Assembly: GCA_913063525.1 (NCBI GenBank)
Contig: CAJXYV010000003.1
Span: forward strand, 1 to 49,749
From: an uncultured Verrucomicrobiota bacterium
GTDB lineage: Bacteria > Verrucomicrobiota > Verrucomicrobiia > Verrucomicrobiales > Akkermansiaceae
Direction of reading: 5' to 3'
Length of the DNA stretch: 49,749 nt
Made by a program: the position numbers and the translations under genes
In this document: in pieces, positions 22,867-34,815 of the stretch
Layout of the letters: every line of letters starts with the position of its first letter
Numbering within the stretch: the stretch's first letter is position 1
The notes under the pieces: generated by a model
Database searches by the model: none
What the model was told of the DNA's origin: nothing
Seen by the model: the letters and a program-made list of their open reading frames with translations, nothing else

Positions 22867-24048
22867 TTAGGAAAGCCGGTCGCGGAAGTCGGCGTAGCCA
22901 AACTCGCGGATAATTTCGAGCTGCCCGTCGTCGTGTTGCAGGGCGATGGGAGGGTGCTTCACGCCGTTAAAAGTCGTAGTCTTCACCATCGTGTAGTGCG
23001 CCATGTCGTCGAAGACGAGCACATCGCCGACCACCAGCGCGCGGTGAAAGGAAAAGTCGCCGACGACATCGCCCGCCAGGCAAGTCGGGCCACCGAGGCG
23101 GTAGGTCCACTCGCCGGATTCGCCCGCTGCATGGTAGTTTTCGCCCGCCATCACGACCGCGGGTTGGCCGTGAGACGGTGCGGCATCGACCAGGAAAACG
23201 TCGGGCCGATACGGCATTTCCATCACGTCGGGCATGTGCGCGGTGGCGGAGATGCTGAGGATCGCGAGGCGGTGGCCGGCGGATTCAAACACGTCCATCA
23301 CCGTCGCCCGCAGCACTCCGCTGTGGATGGCGATCGCTTCGCCGGGTTCTAACCAGACATCGACGCCGTAATTGGCGCGGGTCTCCTTCACCAGGAGGAT
23401 CAGCCGCTCGCGGTCGTAGAAGGGCTTGGTGATCCAGTGCCCGCCGCCCATGTTGAGATAGGTGAATTGGGGCAGCCGCAGCAGGTGGCCGAACTTCTCG
23501 TCGACGGCTGTTAGTGTCTTCTCCAGATCGTCGGAGTTCTGCTCGCAGAGCGTGTGGAAGTGCAGGCCGGAGAGCCCCGTTAGATCCGCGCCCGCCAGCT
23601 GTTCGGCGGTGATGCCGAGTCGCGATCCCGCCACGCAGGGGTCGTAGATCGGCGTGTCGCCGGTCGAACATTCCGGGTTGATACGCAGGCCGCAGTGCAG
23701 CGCGCCACTCTGAAAGCGCGGGTGGGCCATCACAAATTCCCGGAAGCGGAACCACTGCGTCAGCGAGTTGAAATCCAAATGATCGGTGAACTCGCACAGC
23801 GCCGCCACGTCCGCCTCGTCGTAGGCGGGCGAGTAGGTGACGATGTGTTTCTGGAAATAGTCGTGCGCCAGCTGGGCCTCCCACAATCCCGACGCGCAGC
23901 AGCCGTCGAGATCGTCGCGCAGGTAAGGGAAGGCCTTCCAGCAGGAAAATCCTTTCAGCGCCAGCACCAAATGGCAGCTGGCGGCTTCCTTCACCTCTCG
24001 CAAAATCGTAGTGTTGCGCTTCAGTGCGGCGGTCGAGATAACAAACAT
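22867..24048 (-). CDS. nspC: Carboxynorspermidine/carboxyspermidine decarboxylase
   Basis: 393 aa from the ATG at 24048 (MFVISTAALKRNTTILREVKE); an in-frame ATG at 24078 adds ten residues. This fold III PLP decarboxylase makes norspermidine or spermidine from the carboxylated precursor, the alternative polyamine route. The PLP lysine is Lys32 in LALKGFS. Other hallmarks are 'GCCASGLWEAQLA', 'GLRINPECSTGDTPIYDPC', 'GLHFHTLCEQNSDDL', 'LNMGGGHWITKPFYD', 'EPGEAIAIHSG' and 'GGPTCLAGDVVGDF'. The partner, carboxynorspermidine synthase (Lys1-like), is not next to it. The gene is transcribed away from the metzincin locus, with about 160 bp in between. Confidence 0.93.
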   Translation of the reverse strand: MFVISTAALKRNTTILREVKEAASCHLVLALKGFSCWKAFPYLRDDLDGCCASGLWEAQLAHDYFQKHIVTYSPAYDEADVAALCEFTDHLDFNSLTQWFRFREFVMAHPRFQSGALHCGLRINPECSTGDTPIYDPCVAGSRLGITAEQLAGADLTGLSGLHFHTLCEQNSDDLEKTLTAVDEKFGHLLRLPQFTYLNMGGGHWITKPFYDRERLILLVKETRANYGVDVWLEPGEAIAIHSGVLRATVMDVFESAGHRLAILSISATAHMPDVMEMPYRPDVFLVDAAPSHGQPAVVMAGENYHAAGESGEWTYRLGGPTCLAGDVVGDFSFHRALVVGDVLVFDDMAHYTMVKTTTFNGVKHPPIALQHDDGQLEIIREFGYADFRDRLS

Positions 24049-24208
24049 AGTTCCTGACACAGGCTGAGACCTAGTCACGCTGCAATCCAGCAGTTTCTAC
24101 CCGATCGCAGGAAATCACAGCCATCAGGGATAAATTCGGGAAGCCGCCGCTTGGTGCGCAACTTGGCGGATCCATGCAGCCTCAAGATTTCGTGGTTGCG
24201 AGAATTTT

Positions 24209-24991
24209 ATGGCTGGCGAAGATCTGTCAAAGCTCATGCTCTGTCTGTCGCCAATTTTTGATTTTTTGAAGTCTTTCGCCAAGAGAGGATGGATATTTTG
24301 GTCGCTGCTGATTTTTGGCTTGGCGGTCAGTTGGGTGATTTTACAGCGACAGACAGAAAAGCCGACGGTCGCGATGGTGAAAACGGCCAAGACTGCCACC
24401 GATGTGCCGGAACAAGTGGCGGCCGCTCCTGGTGCACGGCTGAATTTTGCGGATTTCAAAAAACGTCCGCTGCCCGTGACCCAGCACAGTGCTACCCATG
24501 AATGGACGGAGGGAGATGGTCGCGATCCCCAAGTGGTCCAACAGATCGCCCACAATGAGGACGAATTCATCAGATTGATGGAGGAGAACGAGCGGATCAT
24601 CCGTCGGCAGCTAGTTTATCGCAATGACACTGCCGCCGCTGTGATTCAACGCTCAAAGCTGAATGGCGGAATGGTGAACCGACTGGTCCTTCCGGGTTTG
24701 GATGGAAAGGAACTCGATTTTGAAATTACCGGCGCTGACCTCGAACCATCCGGACAAATCGGGAGCTTTTCTGGCCATTTGGCGGATCGTCCCACATCGA
24801 GGGTGTCGATTGCGTTCAAATTTGGGCGCGAAGCATTCACGGTCATGTCAGCGGATGATGGAATATTTCTCCAAGGAAGTCCGCGCGAGTCGGGTGAGAT
24901 CATCGTCACGAGTTTCGACCCAGACACTTATTCTCCTCCGCTCGGGGAGGATCATATCAAAACCTCCGAAAATTTCAAATCTGCCCAATGA
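24209..24991 (+). CDS. Membrane-anchored protein resembling a reprolysin (M12B) prodomain
   Basis: 260 aa. One membrane segment near residues 27-45 (GWIFWSLLIFGLAVSWVIL) anchors it, with the rest outside. The C-terminal half (about 150-235) has the look of the propeptide of metzincin/reprolysin proteases: 'LVLPGLDGKELDFEITG', then 'FSGHLADRPTSRVSIAFKFG' and 'AFTVMSADDGIFLQGSP', the beta-sandwich pattern G-x-(V/L)-x5-S-x-V-x-(L/I) seen in those prodomains. No cysteine is available for a cysteine switch in that part. Its stop overlaps the next start as ATGA (24988-24991), so translation is coupled to the giant protein that carries a metzincin domain but no prodomain of its own. The family assignment is from pattern recognition, not a search. 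Confidence 0.65.
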   Translation: MAGEDLSKLMLCLSPIFDFLKSFAKRGWIFWSLLIFGLAVSWVILQRQTEKPTVAMVKTAKTATDVPEQVAAAPGARLNFADFKKRPLPVTQHSATHEWTEGDGRDPQVVQQIAHNEDEFIRLMEENERIIRRQLVYRNDTAAAVIQRSKLNGGMVNRLVLPGLDGKELDFEITGADLEPSGQIGSFSGHLADRPTSRVSIAFKFGREAFTVMSADDGIFLQGSPRESGEIIVTSFDPDTYSPPLGEDHIKTSENFKSAQ

Positions 24992-27900
24992 TGATTCCGA
25001 CTTTAAAAACTTTGGTTCGATCCGCTTTTCTCGCTTCCGCGGTCGTCGTTTTCTTGATGTCGGGTCATGCATTTGCTGCGGCCGAGGCGGATTTGCTGGT
25101 CGCCTACGATCAAACTTATCCACCCACCGTCGGTGGTTCGGATAACGTGCAAGTGCTCGCAGCCAATGCCATCGCGGGCTCCAACTTGATCAATGAACGC
25201 TGCGGCACAGGGGCACGCGTGCGGATCGTCGGATATCATCAAGCGGCTCAATATAGTTACCAGGCCAGTTCGAAGGGCGGCTATGTTGGCTGGATGGCAA
25301 ATTACGATTCCCGCCTTGCCGATGTGGTTGATGCCGGTAACGCGCGGGCCGCGGACTTGGTGGCATTTCTCTGCGTATCTACGAGTGATGGTGCAGCCGC
25401 CGTGGCGCAGCAGCCAGGGCGTTATTCCGCGTTTGATCCCGGCCAGTTTTGGTCCACCGTGGTTGCGCACGAACTGGCGGGACACAACTACGGCTGCGAC
25501 CACAAAGGTGGCAGGGAAAATCCAAAAACCGTGATGCTTCACAACTATTGCGGCGGCGGTGCCCAGGCTTGGTATTCCAATCCGAACATCTGGCTCAATG
25601 GCACCCGCTTGCTTGGCGAAGGAAGCTGTCTCGGCGCTGCGGTTAGCGGAGGTGATAACTCTCTTCTCATCAGTAATAATGCCCAAGGGGTGGCCGACCG
25701 CTATACCCGAGTCGTGACCGCGCCAAATCTCGGCAATGTCGTTCAGCGGTGGGCTTTTAATCAAGCGGCCGGCAACGCGCCAGCGGGAACCACGGTGACC
25801 GATTCCGTCGCCGCTACCCTGCAGGCCACGGTGCAGGGAAATGGCGCGATCTTCACCGGCAGCGGGCTGCGTCTTCCTGGCGGCGCGTCGGGCAGTAATG
25901 CCGCCTACCTGCAATTGCCGTCGGGGGTGATTTCGAAAAATACCAACGCGACCATCGAAATCTGGGCATCGCCTCTCTCCGCGCCGAATTGGTCGCGAAT
26001 CGCAGATTTCAACAACGGCACTTCAAATTACCTAACCCTGACTTCGGCCATTGGCACCGACATCACTGCCCAGCGCTTCGAATCCAAGGTCGGCGGCACT
26101 ACGGTGTCGCTCGATAGCGACCTGCCAACCACAGCGGGCGTGCAACACCTTTACACCATCACTTATGCGAGCACGGGTACCGCCACGGGGCGCTGGACGT
26201 GGTATCGCGATGGCGACGAAGTGGCTTTTCTGGATGTCGCCTACGCACTGTCTGCGCTTTCTGACGTGAATAACTGGCTTGGTCGCTCCGCATTTTCGGC
26301 CGACGCCTTTGCCAACTGCGAGTATGCCGAAGTCCGCATCAGTAACGTGGCGATGAGTCGCGATGAAATTCTCGCCAACTACGAACTTGGACCGAACCGA
26401 ACAAGCGCCAGCGCCAATCTGACAATGGACGATGCCCTCGGCTCGACTTCGTTCAACTCTGCCGGCCACTGGAGCGACGGCTTGGCTCCAGCCGCTGGAA
26501 ATAGCTACGAGACCTACAATTTTCGTCTGCGCACGCCGGCCGACACCGTTTCGCGGACCTTTGCCGGAAAATCATTGAAGCTCAGTGGTGGTTGTTTCAC
26601 ATGGAAAGGAACCTCCAGCAATACAATCACCGTCAATGATCTCACTCTTAGCGGCGATTGCGAAGTTCTCCACGCCGGTTCGGGAACGTGGACGCTGGCC
26701 GGAAACCTGAAGGTCGATTCGGACTCTTCCATGATGCGGGCCGCGAATGGCCCGATCAATCTCACCGCCAATCTCACGGGTGCCAGCACGCTGCTTTGCG
26801 TAAACAACACGGTCACGCTGGGCGGTACGAATACAACCTTTAGTGGTAAAATCGCCGTTGGCGATGGGCGGAGCAGTAGCATCGCTATCGATTCGGAGGC
26901 GCGGCTTGGTCCGAATCCTCCCACGCTTGTCACCGACCAGCTCACGTTCAACCGCGGTGTAATCACGACTTCGGGCACTCTGGTCCTTGACGATCCGAAC
27001 CGCGGCATCCTGTTCGACGTCAACGGTGGGACATTCAATGTCGCCAGCGGCACCACCACGCTCTCGTGTCCGCTTTACAGCCCGGATCTTGGGACTTCTG
27101 TTGTTGCCGGTGGGATTGCCAAGGGCGGCCTTGGAACCCTTATTCTCAGCAGCCCCACGAGCACTTTCAGCGGCACCCTCTGTGTGGATACGGCCAGTAC
27201 GACCTCCGACGACGGGATCGTTCGGGTGGTGAACAATCAGGTTCTCGCGAATGCTCATAACCCGATCTACATCAATAATAACACGACCGGCAGCTCGCGG
27301 CTTCAGATCGACGGTTCGTCCGGCGGCATCACCCTGACGCGCGTGTCTCTCGCGGGTCGGAACGGCGTCACTCCTGCCGTTCAGAATCTCGGCGGCACCA
27401 ATAACGTCGGTGGCCTGACCGTGATGGCGGGGGGCACGAACCACATCGTCCAATCCGACAGCGGTTTGCTGAATTTCACGGGTTCGATTTACTCCGGCGC
27501 GACCGGTACCCAAAACATCACCTTCCAAGGCAGTGGTGACATCGCCACGCTCAGCACGATTTCCGAACTTACTGCGGATCTCGTGAACGTCGTCAAAATC
27601 GGCGGCGGTACTTTGACTCTCGAGGGTGAGTGTTCGCACGACGGCACCACCACGCTAAGTGGCGGCACTCTCCGTCTCAATGGCAGCATGACGACGACAA
27701 CAGGTGCGACTACCACTGCCGTCGGCACGACCTTTGCTGGAACGGGCACCACCAGTTCTCCGACCCGGATTGGCGGCATACACGCGCCCGGAAACTCGAC
27801 CAATTCAACGGGCACGCAAACATTCACTGGTGCGCTTACCTACAGCGCGGCTGCAAAACTCAACTGGTCCCTCGTGGCCAACGGCACTGCTGCAAACTCC

Positions 27901-30900
27901 TCCAATAAAGTCGCCGCCCAAACCGTGACGGTCGATGCTGGGGCTGCGGTCAATCTGGTGTTCAACGGAGCGGGAAGCGCGGTGAACTTCACCAACGTTT
28001 ATTGGACGCAGCCACATAGCTGGAGCGTTCTGACAGCCACGGCGATGGGCGGGCAGTTCGCTCTTGGCACCGTCAGCACCGACTCTGCGGGCAACTCGGT
28101 ATCCAGCTTCGGTTCGTTTTCGCTGCAACAAACCGCCACGGATGTGAAGGTCAACTATTTCCCATTGAATGCCACACCGCCTTCGGTCCCGACGGGGCTG
28201 TCCTCGGCGGCTTCGCCAAGCATGGCGGCTCTCGCATGGGTGGCGCCCATCGGTGCCACGAGCTACAACGTAAAGCGCTCTTCGAACTCTGGCGGCCCCT
28301 ACGAAACCATCGCGACAGGCGTGATCGCCACGACTTTCACCGACACTTCCGTGACCAACGGTACGACCTATTATTACGTCATCACCGCGCTGAACCCGTT
28401 TGGCGAGAGCGGCGAATCGGCCGAAATTTTCGCGACACCCCACTTGCCAGCCACGATCAACAAGGCGAGCAACACCACCTATCTCAATCTACCCGGTAGT
28501 TGGACCGGCGGCATTCTTCCCAATGCGTGGGACACTGCGGTGTGGAGTGGTCTGGCAGGGGCAAACTCGGTGACCCTCGGTTCTAACATGAGTCTCAAGG
28601 GAATCACCGTCGCCACGAATGGTGGTGCCGTCAGCATCGGTGCGGGTAATACCCTTACGGTCGGCATGGGCGGCATCGATCTGAGTGCGGCTACGCAAAA
28701 TCTGACCCTCTCTTCTGGACTAACGATTGGCACGGGCCATCAGGTCTGGAACGTCGCTTCCGCTCGCACACTCACGCTCAACACCGGCGCCTTCACCCGC
28801 ACGGCAGGAGCGACGTTGAATATTCAGGGCGCTGGCACGGTGGCCAGTAGCATGACGGGGTTCACCAATACGAACGGCATTTTGGGATCCTGGGCCACTA
28901 TCGGTACCGGTGCATCCACCCTCTACGCCACCCTCAATGCGGGCGTGATTGCTGGCCTAACTGGAACCAGCAGCGCCATCGGCTGGACTAGCACCAACAA
29001 CAATACTTTCAATTACGACGTGTCTGCCACTGCTGGCAACCTTGGCGTCAGTCGGGTGGCCAATACGGTGAGATATACGGGGGCGGCCGCGAGCCAGAAT
29101 TATGGCAACAGTAACACCACCACGCTGACCCTGAATGGTCTGCTAAACGTCGGGACTGGTACCTTGACTCTGACGCAGGCGGGCGGCACCAGTCTTGGTC
29201 AGGTGTTGATCGGTACCAACAATGCTAACGAGCTGGATCTCATCGCTGCCAATGCGGAGATTGCCATTGCGATTCCGATCATGAACACGGGGACAAACGC
29301 TGGATCGGTGATCATTGCCGGGCCGAATACCGTGACCCTTTCCGGATCGAACACGTTCACTGGGGGGCTCAGTCTGAATTCGGGTACCCTTCAGATCGGT
29401 AACGACAGCGCGCTCAGTTCGGGAACGCTCACGATTTACGGCGGTGCCATTCGTGCCACGGGGGCCTCGCGCACCATTGCCAACAATGTGGTCCTCAATG
29501 GCGATTTCACCCTCGGTCGCAACACGGCATTTACCGGCGCGATCACTCTCAACGACAACGTCACCATTACCTCCGCCAACCCAGACGTGCTGGCCACCAC
29601 CACCACGACTTTCAGCGGCATCATCAGCGGAAGCTGCGGCCTCACCTTCACCCAAGGAGCCAATCCCATCGGGACCATTGCTCTCAATGCAGCCAATACC
29701 TACAGTGGAGGCACGACTCTTGCCGCCGGCAATTTGCAGCTTGGAAATGCATCCGGATTCGGTGCGACCACTGGTGCACTCATCGTGAACGGCGGCACGC
29801 TGAATTTGAATGCATTCAGCCCGACGGTCGGCACGCTCTCGGGCACGGGCGGGATCATCGTCAACCAAGCGACCGGAACCTCGACTTTGACATCCCAGTC
29901 GGTGGCCTCGGCCACTTTTGCCGGGTCGCTTCAAAACGGTGCCGCGGGTCAGGTACTATCTCTAACCAAAAAAGGTAGCGGCACGCTCACACTGACGGGT
30001 TCGAGTAGCTACACCGGCGCCACCACCGTGAGTGCGGGAAAACTCTGCGTCACCGGTTCGCTCTCCGCGACAACCACCACCGTTGCCGTAGGCGCGACAC
30101 TCGGCGGTTCCGGTAGCATCGCTGGGGCAGTCACCTGCAATGGCATACTTGCTCCGGGCGTTTCGACCGAAACCTTGACCCTCGGTTCAGGACTGGTTCT
30201 TACCTCCACCAGCACGCTGGATTATGAGCTCGGCACTACATCTGATCGCACCGTCGTTACCGGGAATTTGACCCTCGACGGTACCGTCAACGTCACCGCT
30301 GGCGCTGGCTTCGCTGCCGAAACTTACACACTGATCACTTACACCGGGACTCTTACTAACAATACGCTCAACGTCGGCACTCTGCCCGCAGGCTTCGCCG
30401 CGACGGTCAATACCGCCACCACAGGCCAAATCAATCTGGTTGTCACCAGCACCAAGACCACGCCGACCATCACAGTCGTACCTACCGCAACAGCGATCAC
30501 CTACGGTCAAACGCTTTCCAACTCCTCACTGACGGGTGGCACCGCATCGGTCGCAGGCACCTTCGCGTTCACTGCTCCTAACACAACGCTCAACGCCGGC
30601 ACCGCAAGCCAAAGCGTGACATTCACCCCAACGGATTCCACCAACTACGACACCGTCACCACCACGACCAGCGTGACAGTCAACAAGGCCACTCCGACCA
30701 TCAGCGTCGCGCCGACTGCATCAGCGATCACCTATGGCCAAGCACTCTCCAGTTCCTCGCTGACGGGCGGCACCGCGTCGGTCGCGGGATTCTTCGCATT
30801 CACCACTCCTGCCACCACTCCCAATGCCGGAACTGCGAGCCAGAGCATGACCTTCACTCCTACTGATTCGAGCAACTACAACACCGTTACCACCACGACC

Positions 30901-33450
30901 AGTGTGACGGTCAATAAAGCCACGCCCACCATCAGCATCGCGCCGACGGCATCAGCGATCACCTACGGCCAAGCACTCTCCAATTCCTCGCTGTCGGGCG
31001 GCACCGCGTCGGTCGCGGGCACCTTCGCGTTCATCACTCCTGCCACCACCCCCAACGCCGGAACTGCGAGCCAAAGCGTGACCTTCACTCCAACGGATTC
31101 GAGCAACTACAATACCGTTACCACAACGACCAGTGTGACCGTCAATAAATCCACGCCCACCGTCAGCGTCGCTCCGACGGCATCAGCGATCACTTACGGC
31201 CAAACGCTATCCAATTCCTCGCTGACGGGCGGCACCGCGTCGGTCGCGGGCTCCTTCGCGTTCACCACTCCTGCCACCACCCCCAACGCAGGAACTGCGA
31301 GCCAGAGCGTGACCTTCACTCCAACGGATTCCATCAATTACAACACCATCACTACCTCGCTCAGCGTGACAGTGAATGAGGGGACTGCAATCTATCAAGT
31401 CACAAACGTTTACTCGGGCGATGGAAGTGAGGACGTGCTTTTCCAAAACGCGGATGGATCGCTTCTCGATGGTGGCATCGTCGCTATTGGTTACTTTCCA
31501 GAAGATTACAGCATTCCAGACAGTTTGAGTCAGGCGAATATCGCGTCAGCCGTGGCCAATTTTACTCCACTCGCATCAGCGTTGTGCGGCGGTTACTCCA
31601 TCAGCCTAGACGGATCGTTCTCTGGTTATGTGGAAGGTGAACAAGTTCCCGGAGAAAACGCCTCCAGCCTGATTGGCCGTCCTCTCTATGTGTTTGTTGG
31701 CAACGCATCCACACTGGCTGCTTCCACTTCGATCGCCATCCACCAAATGGCTGAGTTCGGCCCCAACAATCCACCGTTGGATATTTATTATGGCGCATAC
31801 GTGCTCGACTTCATCGTGGGTGCTCCAGCCCCACTGATCGGACAAGTCGGCACATTCACTGGGATTGCATGGCAAGGGGGAGAAGTTTCTACCTACCAGA
31901 CACTTCAGCTCGCCGGACCGCCACCTGCAACAATCACCACTCCTCCAATGGCTTCGACAATCACCTATGGACAAACCTTAGCGTCTTCCTCGTTGAGCGG
32001 CGGGGTGGGTTCCGTACCCGGAAGTTTTGCATTCTCCACGCCGAGCACGATACCTGGCACGGGCACCTACCTCGCTAGTTACACGTTCATCCCGACGGAC
32101 ACGGTGGCTTACACGAAGACAACGGGCATCATCAGCGTGTTGGTCAATAAGGCCACCCCAACGGTCAGTATCTCACCCACTGCTTCGGCGATCACCTACG
32201 GTCAGGCTCTCTGGAACTCCTCACTGTCGGGCGGCACCGCCTCAGTCGCTGGAACCTTTGCCTTCACGACGTCTGGCACGACTCCCGATGCGGGCACTGT
32301 GAGTCAGAGTGTCGTCTTCTTCCCCACGGATTCAAACAACTACGATACTGCCGCCACCACAGTCAGCGTGACGGTTAACAAGGCTGTGCCCTCCGTCAAT
32401 GCCGCTCCTATGGCCTCAGCGATCACCTACGGGCAAGCGCTCTCCAATTCATCACTCTCGGGCGGTACCGCATCGGTAGCTGGTACATTTAACTTCACAA
32501 CTCCCAGCACCACTCCCAACGCTGGCGCGGCGAACCAAGGCGTGACATTCACGCCCATGGACTCCAGCAACTACAGCACAGTCACCACCACGGCAAGCGT
32601 GACAGTCAACAAGGCCACGCCGACAGTCAGTATCTCACCCACAGCTGAGGCGATTACCTACGGGCAAACTCTCTCCAGTTCCTCTCTATCAGGCGGCACC
32701 GCATCGGTCGCGGGAACCTTCGTTTTCACGAATCCCGTCACGATCCCCGATGCAGGCACGGAAAACCCGAGTGTAACTTTCATCCCCACGGATTTGGACA
32801 ACTATAACACCGCCTCCACTTCAACCAGTTTGACCGTTAATAAGGCCACCGCCACCGTCACGCTGGGCAGCCTTGTCACCACCTACGATGGAACCTCCAA
32901 ATCCGCCACTGCCACCACCACACCAAGCGGTCTAACGGTGAACTTCACCTACGACGGCTCAGCTACGGCGCCGACCAATGCTGGAACTTACTCTGTCGTC
33001 GGAACCATCAGCGATGCCAACTACACGGGCGGTGCCTCAGGTGTTCTGATAATTGCCCAAGCATCCTCGCGCAGTTACAACGCCTGGGTGGGTGAAAAAT
33101 TCACTCCGTCCCAGATTGCCGCCGGTGACTCCGCGGCTACCGCCGACCCCGACCGAGACGGTCTCACCAACCTCGCCGAATACGCGCTCGGCGGCGATCC
33201 TTACGTCTTCACCCCGCAGCCCACAGTCACATCAAACGCCAGCTCGCTGTCGATCACCTTCCAACGCCCCGTGTTGACCAACGACGTCATCTACCGCGCC
33301 GAAAGCTCGTCCGACTTCGCCAACTGGACCGCCCTCACGCTCAACGTGCTCACCACCGGCATCGATCCAGAAACTGTCCGCGCCACCTACACGTATCCGA
33401 ACCCGAATCCACCCAAGAAGCAGTTCATCCGCCTGCGCTTTGAAAAATAG
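24988..33450 (+). CDS. Giant secreted metzincin-domain protein with LamG, autotransporter-associated and MBG-type repeats
   Basis: 2820 aa with a signal peptide (about 1-30, AFA-A). Residues about 35-245 form a metalloprotease-like domain: the zinc motif HELAGHNYGCDH (161-172, HExxHxxGxxH) and a Met-turn candidate Met183 in TVMLHNYC. Next are a LamG-like domain (about 260-470), autotransporter-associated beta-strand repeats (about 480-1055 and 1155-1820; 'GGTLTLEG', 'LTLSGSNTFTGGLSLNSGTLQIGN', 'GSGTLTLTGSSSYTGATTVSAGKL') with an FN3 domain between them (about 1062-1151). Then come eight 'ITYGQ.LS.SSL.GGTASVAG' repeats (about 1825-2620) interrupted at about 2132-2311 by a unique domain, one 'TYDGTSKSATATTTPSGL' MBG unit, and a tail 'DPDRDGLTNLAEYALGG' ending FIRLRFEK. 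No autotransporter beta-barrel is present. It is probably a surface or released adhesin-protease. Confidence 0.9.
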   Translation: MMIPTLKTLVRSAFLASAVVVFLMSGHAFAAAEADLLVAYDQTYPPTVGGSDNVQVLAANAIAGSNLINERCGTGARVRIVGYHQAAQYSYQASSKGGYVGWMANYDSRLADVVDAGNARAADLVAFLCVSTSDGAAAVAQQPGRYSAFDPGQFWSTVVAHELAGHNYGCDHKGGRENPKTVMLHNYCGGGAQAWYSNPNIWLNGTRLLGEGSCLGAAVSGGDNSLLISNNAQGVADRYTRVVTAPNLGNVVQRWAFNQAAGNAPAGTTVTDSVAATLQATVQGNGAIFTGSGLRLPGGASGSNAAYLQLPSGVISKNTNATIEIWASPLSAPNWSRIADFNNGTSNYLTLTSAIGTDITAQRFESKVGGTTVSLDSDLPTTAGVQHLYTITYASTGTATGRWTWYRDGDEVAFLDVAYALSALSDVNNWLGRSAFSADAFANCEYAEVRISNVAMSRDEILANYELGPNRTSASANLTMDDALGSTSFNSAGHWSDGLAPAAGNSYETYNFRLRTPADTVSRTFAGKSLKLSGGCFTWKGTSSNTITVNDLTLSGDCEVLHAGSGTWTLAGNLKVDSDSSMMRAANGPINLTANLTGASTLLCVNNTVTLGGTNTTFSGKIAVGDGRSSSIAIDSEARLGPNPPTLVTDQLTFNRGVITTSGTLVLDDPNRGILFDVNGGTFNVASGTTTLSCPLYSPDLGTSVVAGGIAKGGLGTLILSSPTSTFSGTLCVDTASTTSDDGIVRVVNNQVLANAHNPIYINNNTTGSSRLQIDGSSGGITLTRVSLAGRNGVTPAVQNLGGTNNVGGLTVMAGGTNHIVQSDSGLLNFTGSIYSGATGTQNITFQGSGDIATLSTISELTADLVNVVKIGGGTLTLEGECSHDGTTTLSGGTLRLNGSMTTTTGATTTAVGTTFAGTGTTSSPTRIGGIHAPGNSTNSTGTQTFTGALTYSAAAKLNWSLVANGTAANSSNKVAAQTVTVDAGAAVNLVFNGAGSAVNFTNVYWTQPHSWSVLTATAMGGQFALGTVSTDSAGNSVSSFGSFSLQQTATDVKVNYFPLNATPPSVPTGLSSAASPSMAALAWVAPIGATSYNVKRSSNSGGPYETIATGVIATTFTDTSVTNGTTYYYVITALNPFGESGESAEIFATPHLPATINKASNTTYLNLPGSWTGGILPNAWDTAVWSGLAGANSVTLGSNMSLKGITVATNGGAVSIGAGNTLTVGMGGIDLSAATQNLTLSSGLTIGTGHQVWNVASARTLTLNTGAFTRTAGATLNIQGAGTVASSMTGFTNTNGILGSWATIGTGASTLYATLNAGVIAGLTGTSSAIGWTSTNNNTFNYDVSATAGNLGVSRVANTVRYTGAAASQNYGNSNTTTLTLNGLLNVGTGTLTLTQAGGTSLGQVLIGTNNANELDLIAANAEIAIAIPIMNTGTNAGSVIIAGPNTVTLSGSNTFTGGLSLNSGTLQIGNDSALSSGTLTIYGGAIRATGASRTIANNVVLNGDFTLGRNTAFTGAITLNDNVTITSANPDVLATTTTTFSGIISGSCGLTFTQGANPIGTIALNAANTYSGGTTLAAGNLQLGNASGFGATTGALIVNGGTLNLNAFSPTVGTLSGTGGIIVNQATGTSTLTSQSVASATFAGSLQNGAAGQVLSLTKKGSGTLTLTGSSSYTGATTVSAGKLCVTGSLSATTTTVAVGATLGGSGSIAGAVTCNGILAPGVSTETLTLGSGLVLTSTSTLDYELGTTSDRTVVTGNLTLDGTVNVTAGAGFAAETYTLITYTGTLTNNTLNVGTLPAGFAATVNTATTGQINLVVTSTKTTPTITVVPTATAITYGQTLSNSSLTGGTASVAGTFAFTAPNTTLNAGTASQSVTFTPTDSTNYDTVTTTTSVTVNKATPTISVAPTASAITYGQALSSSSLTGGTASVAGFFAFTTPATTPNAGTASQSMTFTPTDSSNYNTVTTTTSVTVNKATPTISIAPTASAITYGQALSNSSLSGGTASVAGTFAFITPATTPNAGTASQSVTFTPTDSSNYNTVTTTTSVTVNKSTPTVSVAPTASAITYGQTLSNSSLTGGTASVAGSFAFTTPATTPNAGTASQSVTFTPTDSINYNTITTSLSVTVNEGTAIYQVTNVYSGDGSEDVLFQNADGSLLDGGIVAIGYFPEDYSIPDSLSQANIASAVANFTPLASALCGGYSISLDGSFSGYVEGEQVPGENASSLIGRPLYVFVGNASTLAASTSIAIHQMAEFGPNNPPLDIYYGAYVLDFIVGAPAPLIGQVGTFTGIAWQGGEVSTYQTLQLAGPPPATITTPPMASTITYGQTLASSSLSGGVGSVPGSFAFSTPSTIPGTGTYLASYTFIPTDTVAYTKTTGIISVLVNKATPTVSISPTASAITYGQALWNSSLSGGTASVAGTFAFTTSGTTPDAGTVSQSVVFFPTDSNNYDTAATTVSVTVNKAVPSVNAAPMASAITYGQALSNSSLSGGTASVAGTFNFTTPSTTPNAGAANQGVTFTPMDSSNYSTVTTTASVTVNKATPTVSISPTAEAITYGQTLSSSSLSGGTASVAGTFVFTNPVTIPDAGTENPSVTFIPTDLDNYNTASTSTSLTVNKATATVTLGSLVTTYDGTSKSATATTTPSGLTVNFTYDGSATAPTNAGTYSVVGTISDANYTGGASGVLIIAQASSRSYNAWVGEKFTPSQIAAGDSAATADPDRDGLTNLAEYALGGDPYVFTPQPTVTSNASSLSITFQRPVLTNDVIYRAESSSDFANWTALTLNVLTTGIDPETVRATYTYPNPNPPKKQFIRLRFEK
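30460..31383 (+). repeat. 231-bp tandem coding repeats (MBG-type), first block
   Basis: Four consecutive copies with a period of exactly 231 bp (77 codons), boundaries at about 30460, 30691, 30922 and 31153, highly similar at DNA level. A second, more diverged block of four copies lies at about 31930-32850 after a non-repetitive insertion. High nucleotide identity points to recent expansion or gene conversion within the first block. Confidence 0.9.
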
Positions 33451-33594: not shown

Positions 33595-34695
33595 TCACAG
33601 CCACTTCATCCGCTTGAAGATGATCAGCTGAACCACCGCGATCACGGCCATGATGGCCATCACGTCGATGTAGCCATGCGGCAGATAGAGTTCCGGCATG
33701 TTGTAGGGCAGCTTCCGCCCGTCCGCGGTTTGCGGCGCGAAGTTCATGCCGTACACCCCCGCGATGAAAGTCAGCGGGATGAAAATCGAGGTGATCACCG
33801 TCAGCACTCGCATCACCTCGTTGGTCCGCAGGCCGACGCTGGAGTGGTAGAGTTCCATCAGACCGGAGGTCAGTTCCTTGTAACTCTCCACCAAATCCAT
33901 CAGCTGCACGGTGTGGTCGTAGCAGTCGCGCAGGAAAATCTTCGACGGCGTGGTGATGTAGCCCGATGTGTCGTGCAGCAAGCCATTGATCACGTCGCGC
34001 AATGGCCAGACAAAGCGGCGCATCTGCGTCAGGCTACGCTTATAGTCGTGCAAGATGACGAGCATCTCGCGTGACGGCTTTTCTAGCAGGTCGGTTTCCA
34101 GCTCCTCGATCGCCGTGCCGACGTCTTCGAGCACCGGGTAGTAGTGGTCGATGATCGAATCGAGCAACGCGTAGGTGAGATAGTCCGCCTTCGACTTGCG
34201 GATCGAGCCGCGACCCGAGCGGATGCGCTCGCGCACCGGTTCGAAGACGTCGTACTCGGCCTCCTCCTGCACGGTGATGAGGAAGTTTTTGCCGAGAAAA
34301 AAGCTCACCTGCTCGCCGCGGATCGCGCGGCTATTATCCTGATAGACCATCTGCGCGATGATAAACAGGTAGTCGGGCGACTGCTCAACCTTCGGCCGTT
34401 GGCCGGTGTTGAGCACGTCTTCGAGCGCCAGCGGGTGGAGGTGGAATTTTTCGCCCAGAATCTTCAGCGCCTCCACATCGCCGAGCCCGTCAATGTTGAT
34501 CCACGTCACCTTGCGGTTGTCCAGATGCGCTGCCAATTCTTCCAGATCCACCACCTCGCGCTCCTCCAGCGAATCCCGATCGTACTCGATGATCTGGATC
34601 TCCGGCTTGCGGATCTGGCCATCGACCAGATGGGGCAGCAGCGTGGCGGGCGATGATCCCGGCGGGCCGTGGCGTTTGGCGAACATACTCGCCAT
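33595..34695 (-). CDS. corA: CorA-type magnesium/cobalt transporter
   Basis: 366 aa from the ATG at 34695; ATGs at 34743 and 34686 are also in frame, and no Shine-Dalgarno sequence decides among them. CorA proteins are pentameric channels in the inner membrane that import Mg2+ (some carry Co2+ or Zn2+). The large cytoplasmic domain is followed by two membrane helices; the selectivity motif GMN is at 316-318 (GVYGMNF). Other family segments are 'HPLALEDVLNTGQRPKVEQ', 'DYLTYALLDSIIDHYYPVLE' and the basic C-terminal end 'IIFKRMKWL'. It is convergent with the giant protein gene, with 144 bp between them and no clear terminator. Confidence 0.95.
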   Translation of the reverse strand: MASMFAKRHGPPGSSPATLLPHLVDGQIRKPEIQIIEYDRDSLEEREVVDLEELAAHLDNRKVTWINIDGLGDVEALKILGEKFHLHPLALEDVLNTGQRPKVEQSPDYLFIIAQMVYQDNSRAIRGEQVSFFLGKNFLITVQEEAEYDVFEPVRERIRSGRGSIRKSKADYLTYALLDSIIDHYYPVLEDVGTAIEELETDLLEKPSREMLVILHDYKRSLTQMRRFVWPLRDVINGLLHDTSGYITTPSKIFLRDCYDHTVQLMDLVESYKELTSGLMELYHSSVGLRTNEVMRVLTVITSIFIPLTFIAGVYGMNFAPQTADGRKLPYNMPELYLPHGYIDVMAIMAVIAVVQLIIFKRMKWL

Positions 34696-34815
34696 GTTAG
34701 CCAGCGCGCCCGCCGAAGCAAGCCGCCGAACGTGCGCGTTCAAAACGCTAGATCAAATCGCCTCCACAGCGGCGATGATGGCGCGTTTCGGCTTCGGCCA
34801 GCCCCGCATAAAGGG

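What the first reader, a model, noticed from the sequence alone, without database searches (positions are those of the whole stretch)
24209..25700. Split metzincin: a membrane-anchored prodomain-like protein translationally coupled to a giant secreted protease
In reprolysins the inhibitory prodomain and the protease are one chain. Here the giant protein's signal peptide leads directly into the protease-like domain (HELAGHNYGCDH at residues 161-172, Met-turn candidate Met183) without a prodomain. The gene just before it, overlapping by ATGA, encodes a single-pass membrane protein whose C-terminal half has the prodomain-like pattern 'FSGHLADRPTSRVSIAFKFG...GIFLQG'. A prodomain supplied in trans and held at the membrane could keep the enzyme inactive, or act as folding chaperone, until export. 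I know of no described system of this kind, but this is inference from motif patterns.
Basis: partly seen in the sequence, partly recalled or inferred. Interest (0 to 1): 0.78.

Follow-up and report, generated by a model that had tools for sequence, protein, structure and literature searches.

The report
Split membrane-tethered prodomain paired with metzincin
A bacterial secreted protease has its inhibitory and folding "prodomain" on a separate membrane-anchored protein made by the gene next door, and relatives with the two parts still joined show that the pair arose by splitting one enzyme, a parallel to the known CpaA-CpaB protease-chaperone pair.

Summary
ORF1 (24209-24991, 260 aa, one N-terminal membrane helix) overlaps by ATGA the 2820-aa ORF2 (24988-33450), whose signal peptide runs straight into a reprolysin-like metzincin domain. 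The pair is conserved: 25 of 30 ORF1 loci in the family sit beside a metzincin gene. In the wider phylum most relatives of this metzincin (39 of 53 classified) carry an N-terminal prodomain in cis, and a profile of split ORF1s matches a profile of these cis propeptides (hhalign probability 97.7%, P 2e-12), which were chosen only by their protease domains. Split and fused states changed at least 2-3 times on the tree. ORF1 is therefore a detached, membrane-anchored propeptide. A Cys motif after the propeptide (21/21 fused, 26/36 split) looks like a cysteine switch, but the window copy lacks it. Extra surprise: the window clade (10/10) has a zinc motif one residue too long, HExxGHNxGxxH. Function is inferred, not tested.

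The parts
24209..24991 (+). ORF1: membrane-anchored trans propeptide (260 aa)
24287..24343 (+). single transmembrane helix of ORF1 (residues 27-45), positively charged N-side
   Evidence: hydropathy 2.07 over 19 residues, no second segment
24464..24658 (+). conserved pre-core region of ORF1 (residues 86-150: RPLPV, HEWT, ENERI, RRQLVYR), typical of the family-level split forms
   Evidence: alignments A1 and A7; predicted mostly helical at low confidence
24668..24940 (+). propeptide core of ORF1 (residues 154-244), homologous to cis propeptides of fused relatives
   Evidence: hhalign A1/A3 and A4/A3; HMM test against shuffles
24941..24988 (+). C-terminal tail of ORF1; in most relatives it holds a cysteine-switch-like xCG motif, absent in the window copy
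24988..24991 (+). ATGA start/stop overlap (translational coupling)
   Evidence: same -4 overlap in L055 (GTGA), L056, L065, L117, L119, L120
24988..33450 (+). ORF2: giant secreted protein with N-terminal metzincin domain
24988..25080 (+). signal peptide of ORF2 (about residues 1-31)
   Evidence: sequence, aligned N-termini of all paired proteases
25081..25716 (+). metzincin (reprolysin-like) domain
   Evidence: Pfam PF13688; PDB profile match to CpaA, BaP1, adamalysin
25468..25503 (+). zinc motif HELAGHNYGCDH = HExxGHxxGxxH, one residue longer than canonical
   Evidence: conserved in 10/10 of the clade
25534..25536 (+). Met183, Met-turn candidate (KTVMLHNY)
   Evidence: aligned T(I/V)M in most paired proteases
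25717..33447 (+). rest of ORF2: LamG-like region, autotransporter-type PATR repeats, MBG-like repeats, C-terminal domain
   Evidence: PF12951 / TIGR02601, 5 stretches; other labels from reading the sequence

Best explanation
ORF1 is the propeptide of the ORF2 metzincin, split off onto its own gene and held in the cytoplasmic membrane facing the periplasm. Translational coupling makes the two together; ORF2 enters the periplasm by its own signal peptide; the ORF1 core folds onto the protease domain, helps it to fold and masks its zinc site (by a cysteine switch in most relatives, by another residue or by bulk in the window copy); the finished protease is then released without any cleavage and exported, probably by a type II secretion system, leaving the anchored propeptide behind. 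Shown here: gene arrangement, conservation, homology to cis propeptides, repeated change between split and fused, Cys motif. Inferred: contact, folding help, inhibition, route of export, re-use of the propeptide.
For: Pair conservation: 25 of 30 ORF1 loci in the family adjoin a metzincin (23 with it downstream, window included, 2 upstream); 14 of 53 phylum loci picked by the protease alone are split, each with an ORF1-like neighbour. Homology: ORF1 profile against cis-propeptide profile, probability 97.7% / P 2.3e-12, and 98.4% / 6.3e-15 with more rows; an HMM of split cores only scores 34 of 39 fused N-termini above all 780 shuffles. Fused forms exist in the same class, family and genus (L122, L086/L087, L088). 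Conserved Cys right after the propeptide, 21/21 fused and 26/36 split, with almost no Cys elsewhere in the core. Tree: at least 3 changes between split and fused, 2 forced by well-supported branches. ORF1 and protease distances go together (r 0.84, 0 of 5000 permutations). The protease's best solved relative is CpaA (1.2e-10), some members match CpaA or Mep72 in NCBIfam; CpaB is second by VIA-align among fold matches of ORF1. Secretins are encoded in the genome.
Against: No direct evidence of contact or activity. The ORF1 model has pLDDT 44, the protease model 35, so the CpaB fold match is only a hint. PF01562 is not matched. The window ORF1 lacks the Cys. Co-variation of distances is expected for adjacent genes anyway. 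Four ORF1 relatives have no metzincin nearby and one adjoins a different HELGH protein. That ORF2 is an active protease is unproved, given its odd zinc motif.
Confidence: 0.72

Rival explanations
1. ORF1 is a membrane-bound folding chaperone of the CpaB/Lif type only: it helps the protease fold and reach the secretion system but does not serve as an inhibitor.
For: CpaB and Lif have the same build (N-terminal anchor, adjacent gene; PMC4713064); the window copy has lost the switch Cys; splitting would let one chaperone act many times.
Against: Homology to propeptides with a conserved Cys motif points to masking of the active site; CpaB itself blocks the CpaA site (PMC7542363).
Confidence: 0.4
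2. ORF1 is a periplasmic safety inhibitor (as potempins are for Tannerella proteases), not needed for folding.
For: Operon pairing with a protease, inhibitor gene first, as for potempins (PMC7296668).
Against: Homology to cis propeptides; membrane helix in place of lipoprotein lipidation.
Confidence: 0.2
3. The pair is an accident: a recent split or frameshift of a fused gene in one assembly, or a chance neighbour.
For: An ATGA overlap could arise by a small frame change; fused relatives exist.
Against: Same pair in many genomes with different spacings (-62 to +240 nt), own signal peptide on ORF2 and own anchor on ORF1, at 33-48% ORF1 identity in the clade.
Confidence: 0.01
4. ORF2 is a catalytically dead metzincin-like binding protein (HExxGH breaks zinc binding), and ORF1 is a scaffold or assembly factor.
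For: One-residue insertion in the zinc helix in 10/10 of the window clade.
Against: All three His, the Glu, Gly and T(I/V)M are kept across 46-78% identity; dipeptidyl peptidase III enzymes (M49) are active with HExxGH (PMC5805324, PMC5667867).
Confidence: 0.2

Closest known systems
CpaA-CpaB of Acinetobacter (type II secreted metzincin and membrane-anchored chaperone)
   Same: Adamalysin-like metzincin; adjacent gene for a protein with one N-terminal TM helix and a periplasmic domain; protease is the best PDB profile match (6o38_A); CpaB's C-terminal tail blocks the active site (PMC7542363).
   Different: cpaB lies downstream of cpaA; CpaB was assigned to an SRPBCC-like domain (PMC4713064) and shows no sequence match to ORF1 here; ORF2 carries LamG/PATR/MBG-type repeats; a propeptide origin of CpaB is not stated in the passages I could read.
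Mep72 (PA2783) of Pseudomonas aeruginosa and its neighbour with an N-terminal TM helix
   Same: Metzincin plus adjacent anchored protein (Table 1 of PMC4713064); the NCBIfam Mep72 model hits 3 of 23 paired proteases.
   Different: Partner sequence not compared here.
Fused reprolysin-like metallopeptidases of the same phylum (propeptide in cis)
   Same: Same metzincin family and same propeptide core and Cys motif.
   Different: One chain; propeptide would have to be cut off; canonical HExxH.
Lipase-specific foldases (Lif/LipB)
   Same: Membrane-anchored steric chaperone encoded next to its secreted client; anchor, linker, folding domain.
   Different: Client is a lipase; no match of ORF1 to lipase-chaperone models.
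Potempins of Tannerella forsythia
   Same: Inhibitor gene directly before a secreted protease gene (PMC7296668).
   Different: Small lipoproteins; ORF1 has a TM helix and propeptide homology.
Dipeptidyl peptidase III (M49)
   Same: HExxGH zinc motif with one extra residue.
   Different: Not a metzincin; only the motif is alike.

Membership tests
Metzincin / M12 reprolysin-like peptidase | match to a curated family model | tested here: met
   PF13688 at 32.6 bits, cut-off 27; 20 of 23 paired proteases match
Metzincin / M12 reprolysin-like peptidase | zinc motif HExxHxxGxxH | tested here: not met
   window has HExxGHxxGxxH; all 10 of its clade do, the HExxH spacing is in the other paired and the fused relatives
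Metzincin / M12 reprolysin-like peptidase | Met-turn below the zinc | tested here: inconclusive
   aligned Met183 in T(I/V)M, but no usable structure
M12B propeptide (PF01562) | match to the Pfam model | tested here: not met
   genome scans found nothing over the cut-off
M12B propeptide (PF01562) | cysteine switch after the propeptide | tested here: not met
   absent in the window ORF1; candidate Cys present in 26/36 split and 21/21 fused relatives
Propeptide of this phylum's reprolysin-like family (cis forms) | homology to cis propeptides | tested here: met
CpaAB-type membrane-anchored metzincin chaperone pair | client metzincin related to CpaA | tested here: met
   6o38_A E 1.2e-10 with the profile; NCBIfam CpaA in 4 of 23
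CpaAB-type membrane-anchored metzincin chaperone pair | adjacent gene with one N-terminal TM helix | tested here: met
CpaAB-type membrane-anchored metzincin chaperone pair | partner has the CpaB fold | tested here: inconclusive
   6o38_G is second in VIA-align, Z 4.4, from a model of pLDDT 44
CpaAB-type membrane-anchored metzincin chaperone pair | needed for type II secretion of the client | not testable with these tools
   two secretins in the genome but no functional link
Lipase-specific foldase | lipase chaperone model | tested here: not met
   no such match in Pfam or NCBIfam
Potempin | lipoprotein signal | tested here: not met
   no lipobox in the window ORF1

The most novel reading that the evidence does not exclude
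Membrane-anchored metzincin chaperones of the CpaB kind are split-off zymogen propeptides: fused reprolysin-like zymogens, themselves often seemingly anchored by the propeptide end, were cut into two genes several times, turning a one-use, cleaved propeptide with a cysteine switch into a reusable trans-acting foldase and inhibitor; in one clade the client even changed its zinc motif to HExxGHxxGxxH.
Probability: 0.45. Interest if true: 0.78.

Novelty: new variant of a known kind. Interest (0 to 1): 0.62.

Why it matters
It ties two things that were described apart: zymogen propeptides in cis and membrane-anchored secretion chaperones such as CpaB. A protein family with both fused and split members, in which the state has changed more than once and one genome can hold eight such propeptide genes, makes the origin of these chaperones testable by sequence and by swapping parts. 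It would also explain why CpaB plugs the CpaA active site. A metzincin clade with a lengthened zinc motif is a further test of how rigid that motif is.

Tried and rejected
Sequencing or frameshift artefact: rejected by conservation in many genomes with separate signals. M12B propeptide by Pfam: no match in ORF1, in its relatives or in the fused propeptides. Hits of the ORF1 profile to designed beta-trefoil and TIM-barrel proteins rest on a short repeated stretch and are taken as artefacts. The XPC-binding hit of ORF1 is below cut-off and without meaning. A direct sequence comparison with CpaB or the Mep72 partner was not made: their sequences did not turn up in what I searched, and I did not fetch pathogen plasmids for it. 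Relatives on plasmids of Photobacterium and Pseudoalteromonas look fused but score weakly with the propeptide HMM. Promoter and terminator scan of 23900-25100 gave nothing beyond chance.

Full report
WHAT IS THERE. ORF1 runs from 24209 to 24991 and ORF2 from 24988 to 33450 on the + strand, sharing ATGA. The two-gene unit lies between genes on the opposite strand (ORFs 22867-24078 and 33595-34743). ORF1 has one hydrophobic helix (residues 27-45) with positive charges before it, a linker, and a conserved remainder. ORF2 has a signal peptide, then at once a metzincin domain (Pfam Reprolysin_5, 32.6 bits), then about 2,580 residues of repeats, of which the PATR repeats are recognised.

CONSERVATION OF THE PAIR. 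In 195 genomes of the same family, ORF1 finds 20 genomes and the protease domain 18, largely at the same places. I inspected 30 ORF1 loci including the window: 23 have a metzincin directly downstream (start codon from 62 nt before to 240 nt after the ORF1 stop), two have it directly upstream (L080, L082), one adjoins another HELGH protein and four have none nearby. One genome, G115, holds eight ORF1 copies. In the smallest pairs the protease is only 231-243 residues: signal peptide and metzincin domain, nothing else. In two loci of G131 the genes are in frame with one stop and 27 nt between them.

FUSED RELATIVES. A profile of the paired proteases (A2) was run over 388 genomes of the phylum. 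Of the 53 loci I could classify, 14 are split and 39 have about 120-385 residues before the protease in the same frame. These N-terminal stretches were collected by the protease alone (A3), so comparing them with ORF1 is an independent test. An HMM of split cores alone scores 34 of 39 fused N-termini above the best of 780 shuffled sequences (39.5 bits for the best, 3.5 for the best shuffle). Fused forms also occur in the window's own family and genus (L086, L087, L088). ORF1 is thus a detached propeptide. Several fused forms begin with what reads as an uncleaved anchor (L122, L181), so tethering by the propeptide may be older than the split (reading of the sequence, not tested).

HOW OFTEN THE STATE CHANGED. 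On a maximum-likelihood tree of 68 protease domains, split and fused need at least three changes, two of them forced by well-supported branches; no shuffle of labels comes near. L179 is a lone split among fused relatives, with a signal-peptide-bearing ORF1; L115, L117-L120 and L165 form another split group within a mostly fused part. The root is unknown, so the direction of the deepest change is not settled. In L126, L080 and L082 the order of the genes is reversed, the order reported for cpaA-cpaB.

A CYSTEINE-SWITCH-LIKE MOTIF. Just after the propeptide core lies the one conserved Cys, often in xCGG or xCG: 21 of 21 fused rows with a residue there, 26 of 36 split rows; the core has five other Cys in 58 rows. 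A switch role is inferred by analogy with MMP and ADAM zymogens (own knowledge). In split pairs it sits on the anchored partner. The window ORF1 and its nearest relatives (L055, L056, L116, also L061) lack it, so their masking, if any, must use something else.

AN ODD ZINC MOTIF. The window clade, ten proteins in two families of the class, has HE[LST][AG]GHN[YF]GxxH, one residue more between HE and H than any other relative aligned. The remaining ligands and the T(I/V)M are kept. The hexapeptide HExxGH is known from dipeptidyl peptidase III; a search for papers on a metzincin with HExxxH found one paper, not on this point. Whether these enzymes are active is open.

COMPARISON WITH THE KNOWN. 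CpaA of Acinetobacter, a metzincin, is the best match of the paired proteases among solved structures (E 1.2e-10) and NCBIfam calls some of them CpaA- or Mep72-like. CpaA depends on CpaB, anchored by an N-terminal helix, encoded next door, binding 1:1 in the periplasm, its C-terminal tail in the active site 'similar to zymogens'; without the anchor the complex is secreted (PMC7542363, PMC4713064). Mep72 also has an adjacent protein with an N-terminal helix. So the arrangement is not new. What I did not find described is that such a partner is a propeptide by descent; the two papers on the CpaAB complex itself were not held. ORF1 and CpaB could not be compared by sequence. From the low-confidence ORF1 model, chains of CpaB come second in VIA-align (Z 4.4 over 83 residues, rmsd 6.9) and sixteenth in Foldseek (E 0.21), in the very entry that the protease points to. 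Z below 8 proves no shared fold, so I use this as a lead only. The ADAM17 propeptide is the only propeptide among the sequence matches of the ORF1 profile, at E about 0.1.

MECHANISM. Most likely ORF1 binds the nascent protease in the periplasm, helps it to fold and keeps its zinc site covered; release and export need no cleavage. Gene arrangement, homology, repeated change of state and the Cys motif are shown; binding, chaperoning, inhibition and the export route are inferred. Two secretins in the genome fit type II secretion but prove nothing.

VERDICT. A real, conserved split zymogen, a new variant of the CpaA-CpaB kind, with fused relatives that reveal where the partner came from.

Noticed in passing
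25468-25503; L055-L061, L114, L116: Metzincin zinc motif lengthened by one residue (HExxGHNxGxxH) in all ten members of the window clade, HExxH spacing in other relatives.
   Followed up: partly
L064-L071 (G115): One small genome holds eight ORF1 genes, most with their own small metzincin of about 230-243 residues; a paralogue expansion of unknown purpose.
   Followed up: partly
L067, L070, L081, L083, L121: ORF1 relatives without a metzincin nearby; L083 and L081 adjoin other secreted or anchored proteins, L121 may be a lipoprotein. Possible orphans or other clients.
   Followed up: partly
L084, 364-3316 of the reverse complement: ORF1 relative next to a 969-aa secreted protein with HELGH but without the metzincin third His: perhaps another class of metalloprotease using the same kind of partner.
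   Followed up: no
L080 1219-4633, L082 1-3316: Large proteins with a C-terminal metzincin domain directly upstream of the ORF1 gene: reversed gene order and reversed domain layout.
   Followed up: partly
window 29900-33000: ORF2 is twice as long as its relatives (2820 against about 1280-1380 aa), with repeated MBG-like units and PATR repeats.
   Followed up: no
L060 and L061: In G131 both pairs are in frame, separated by a single stop and 27 nt; a natural place to look for read-through or refusion.
   Followed up: no
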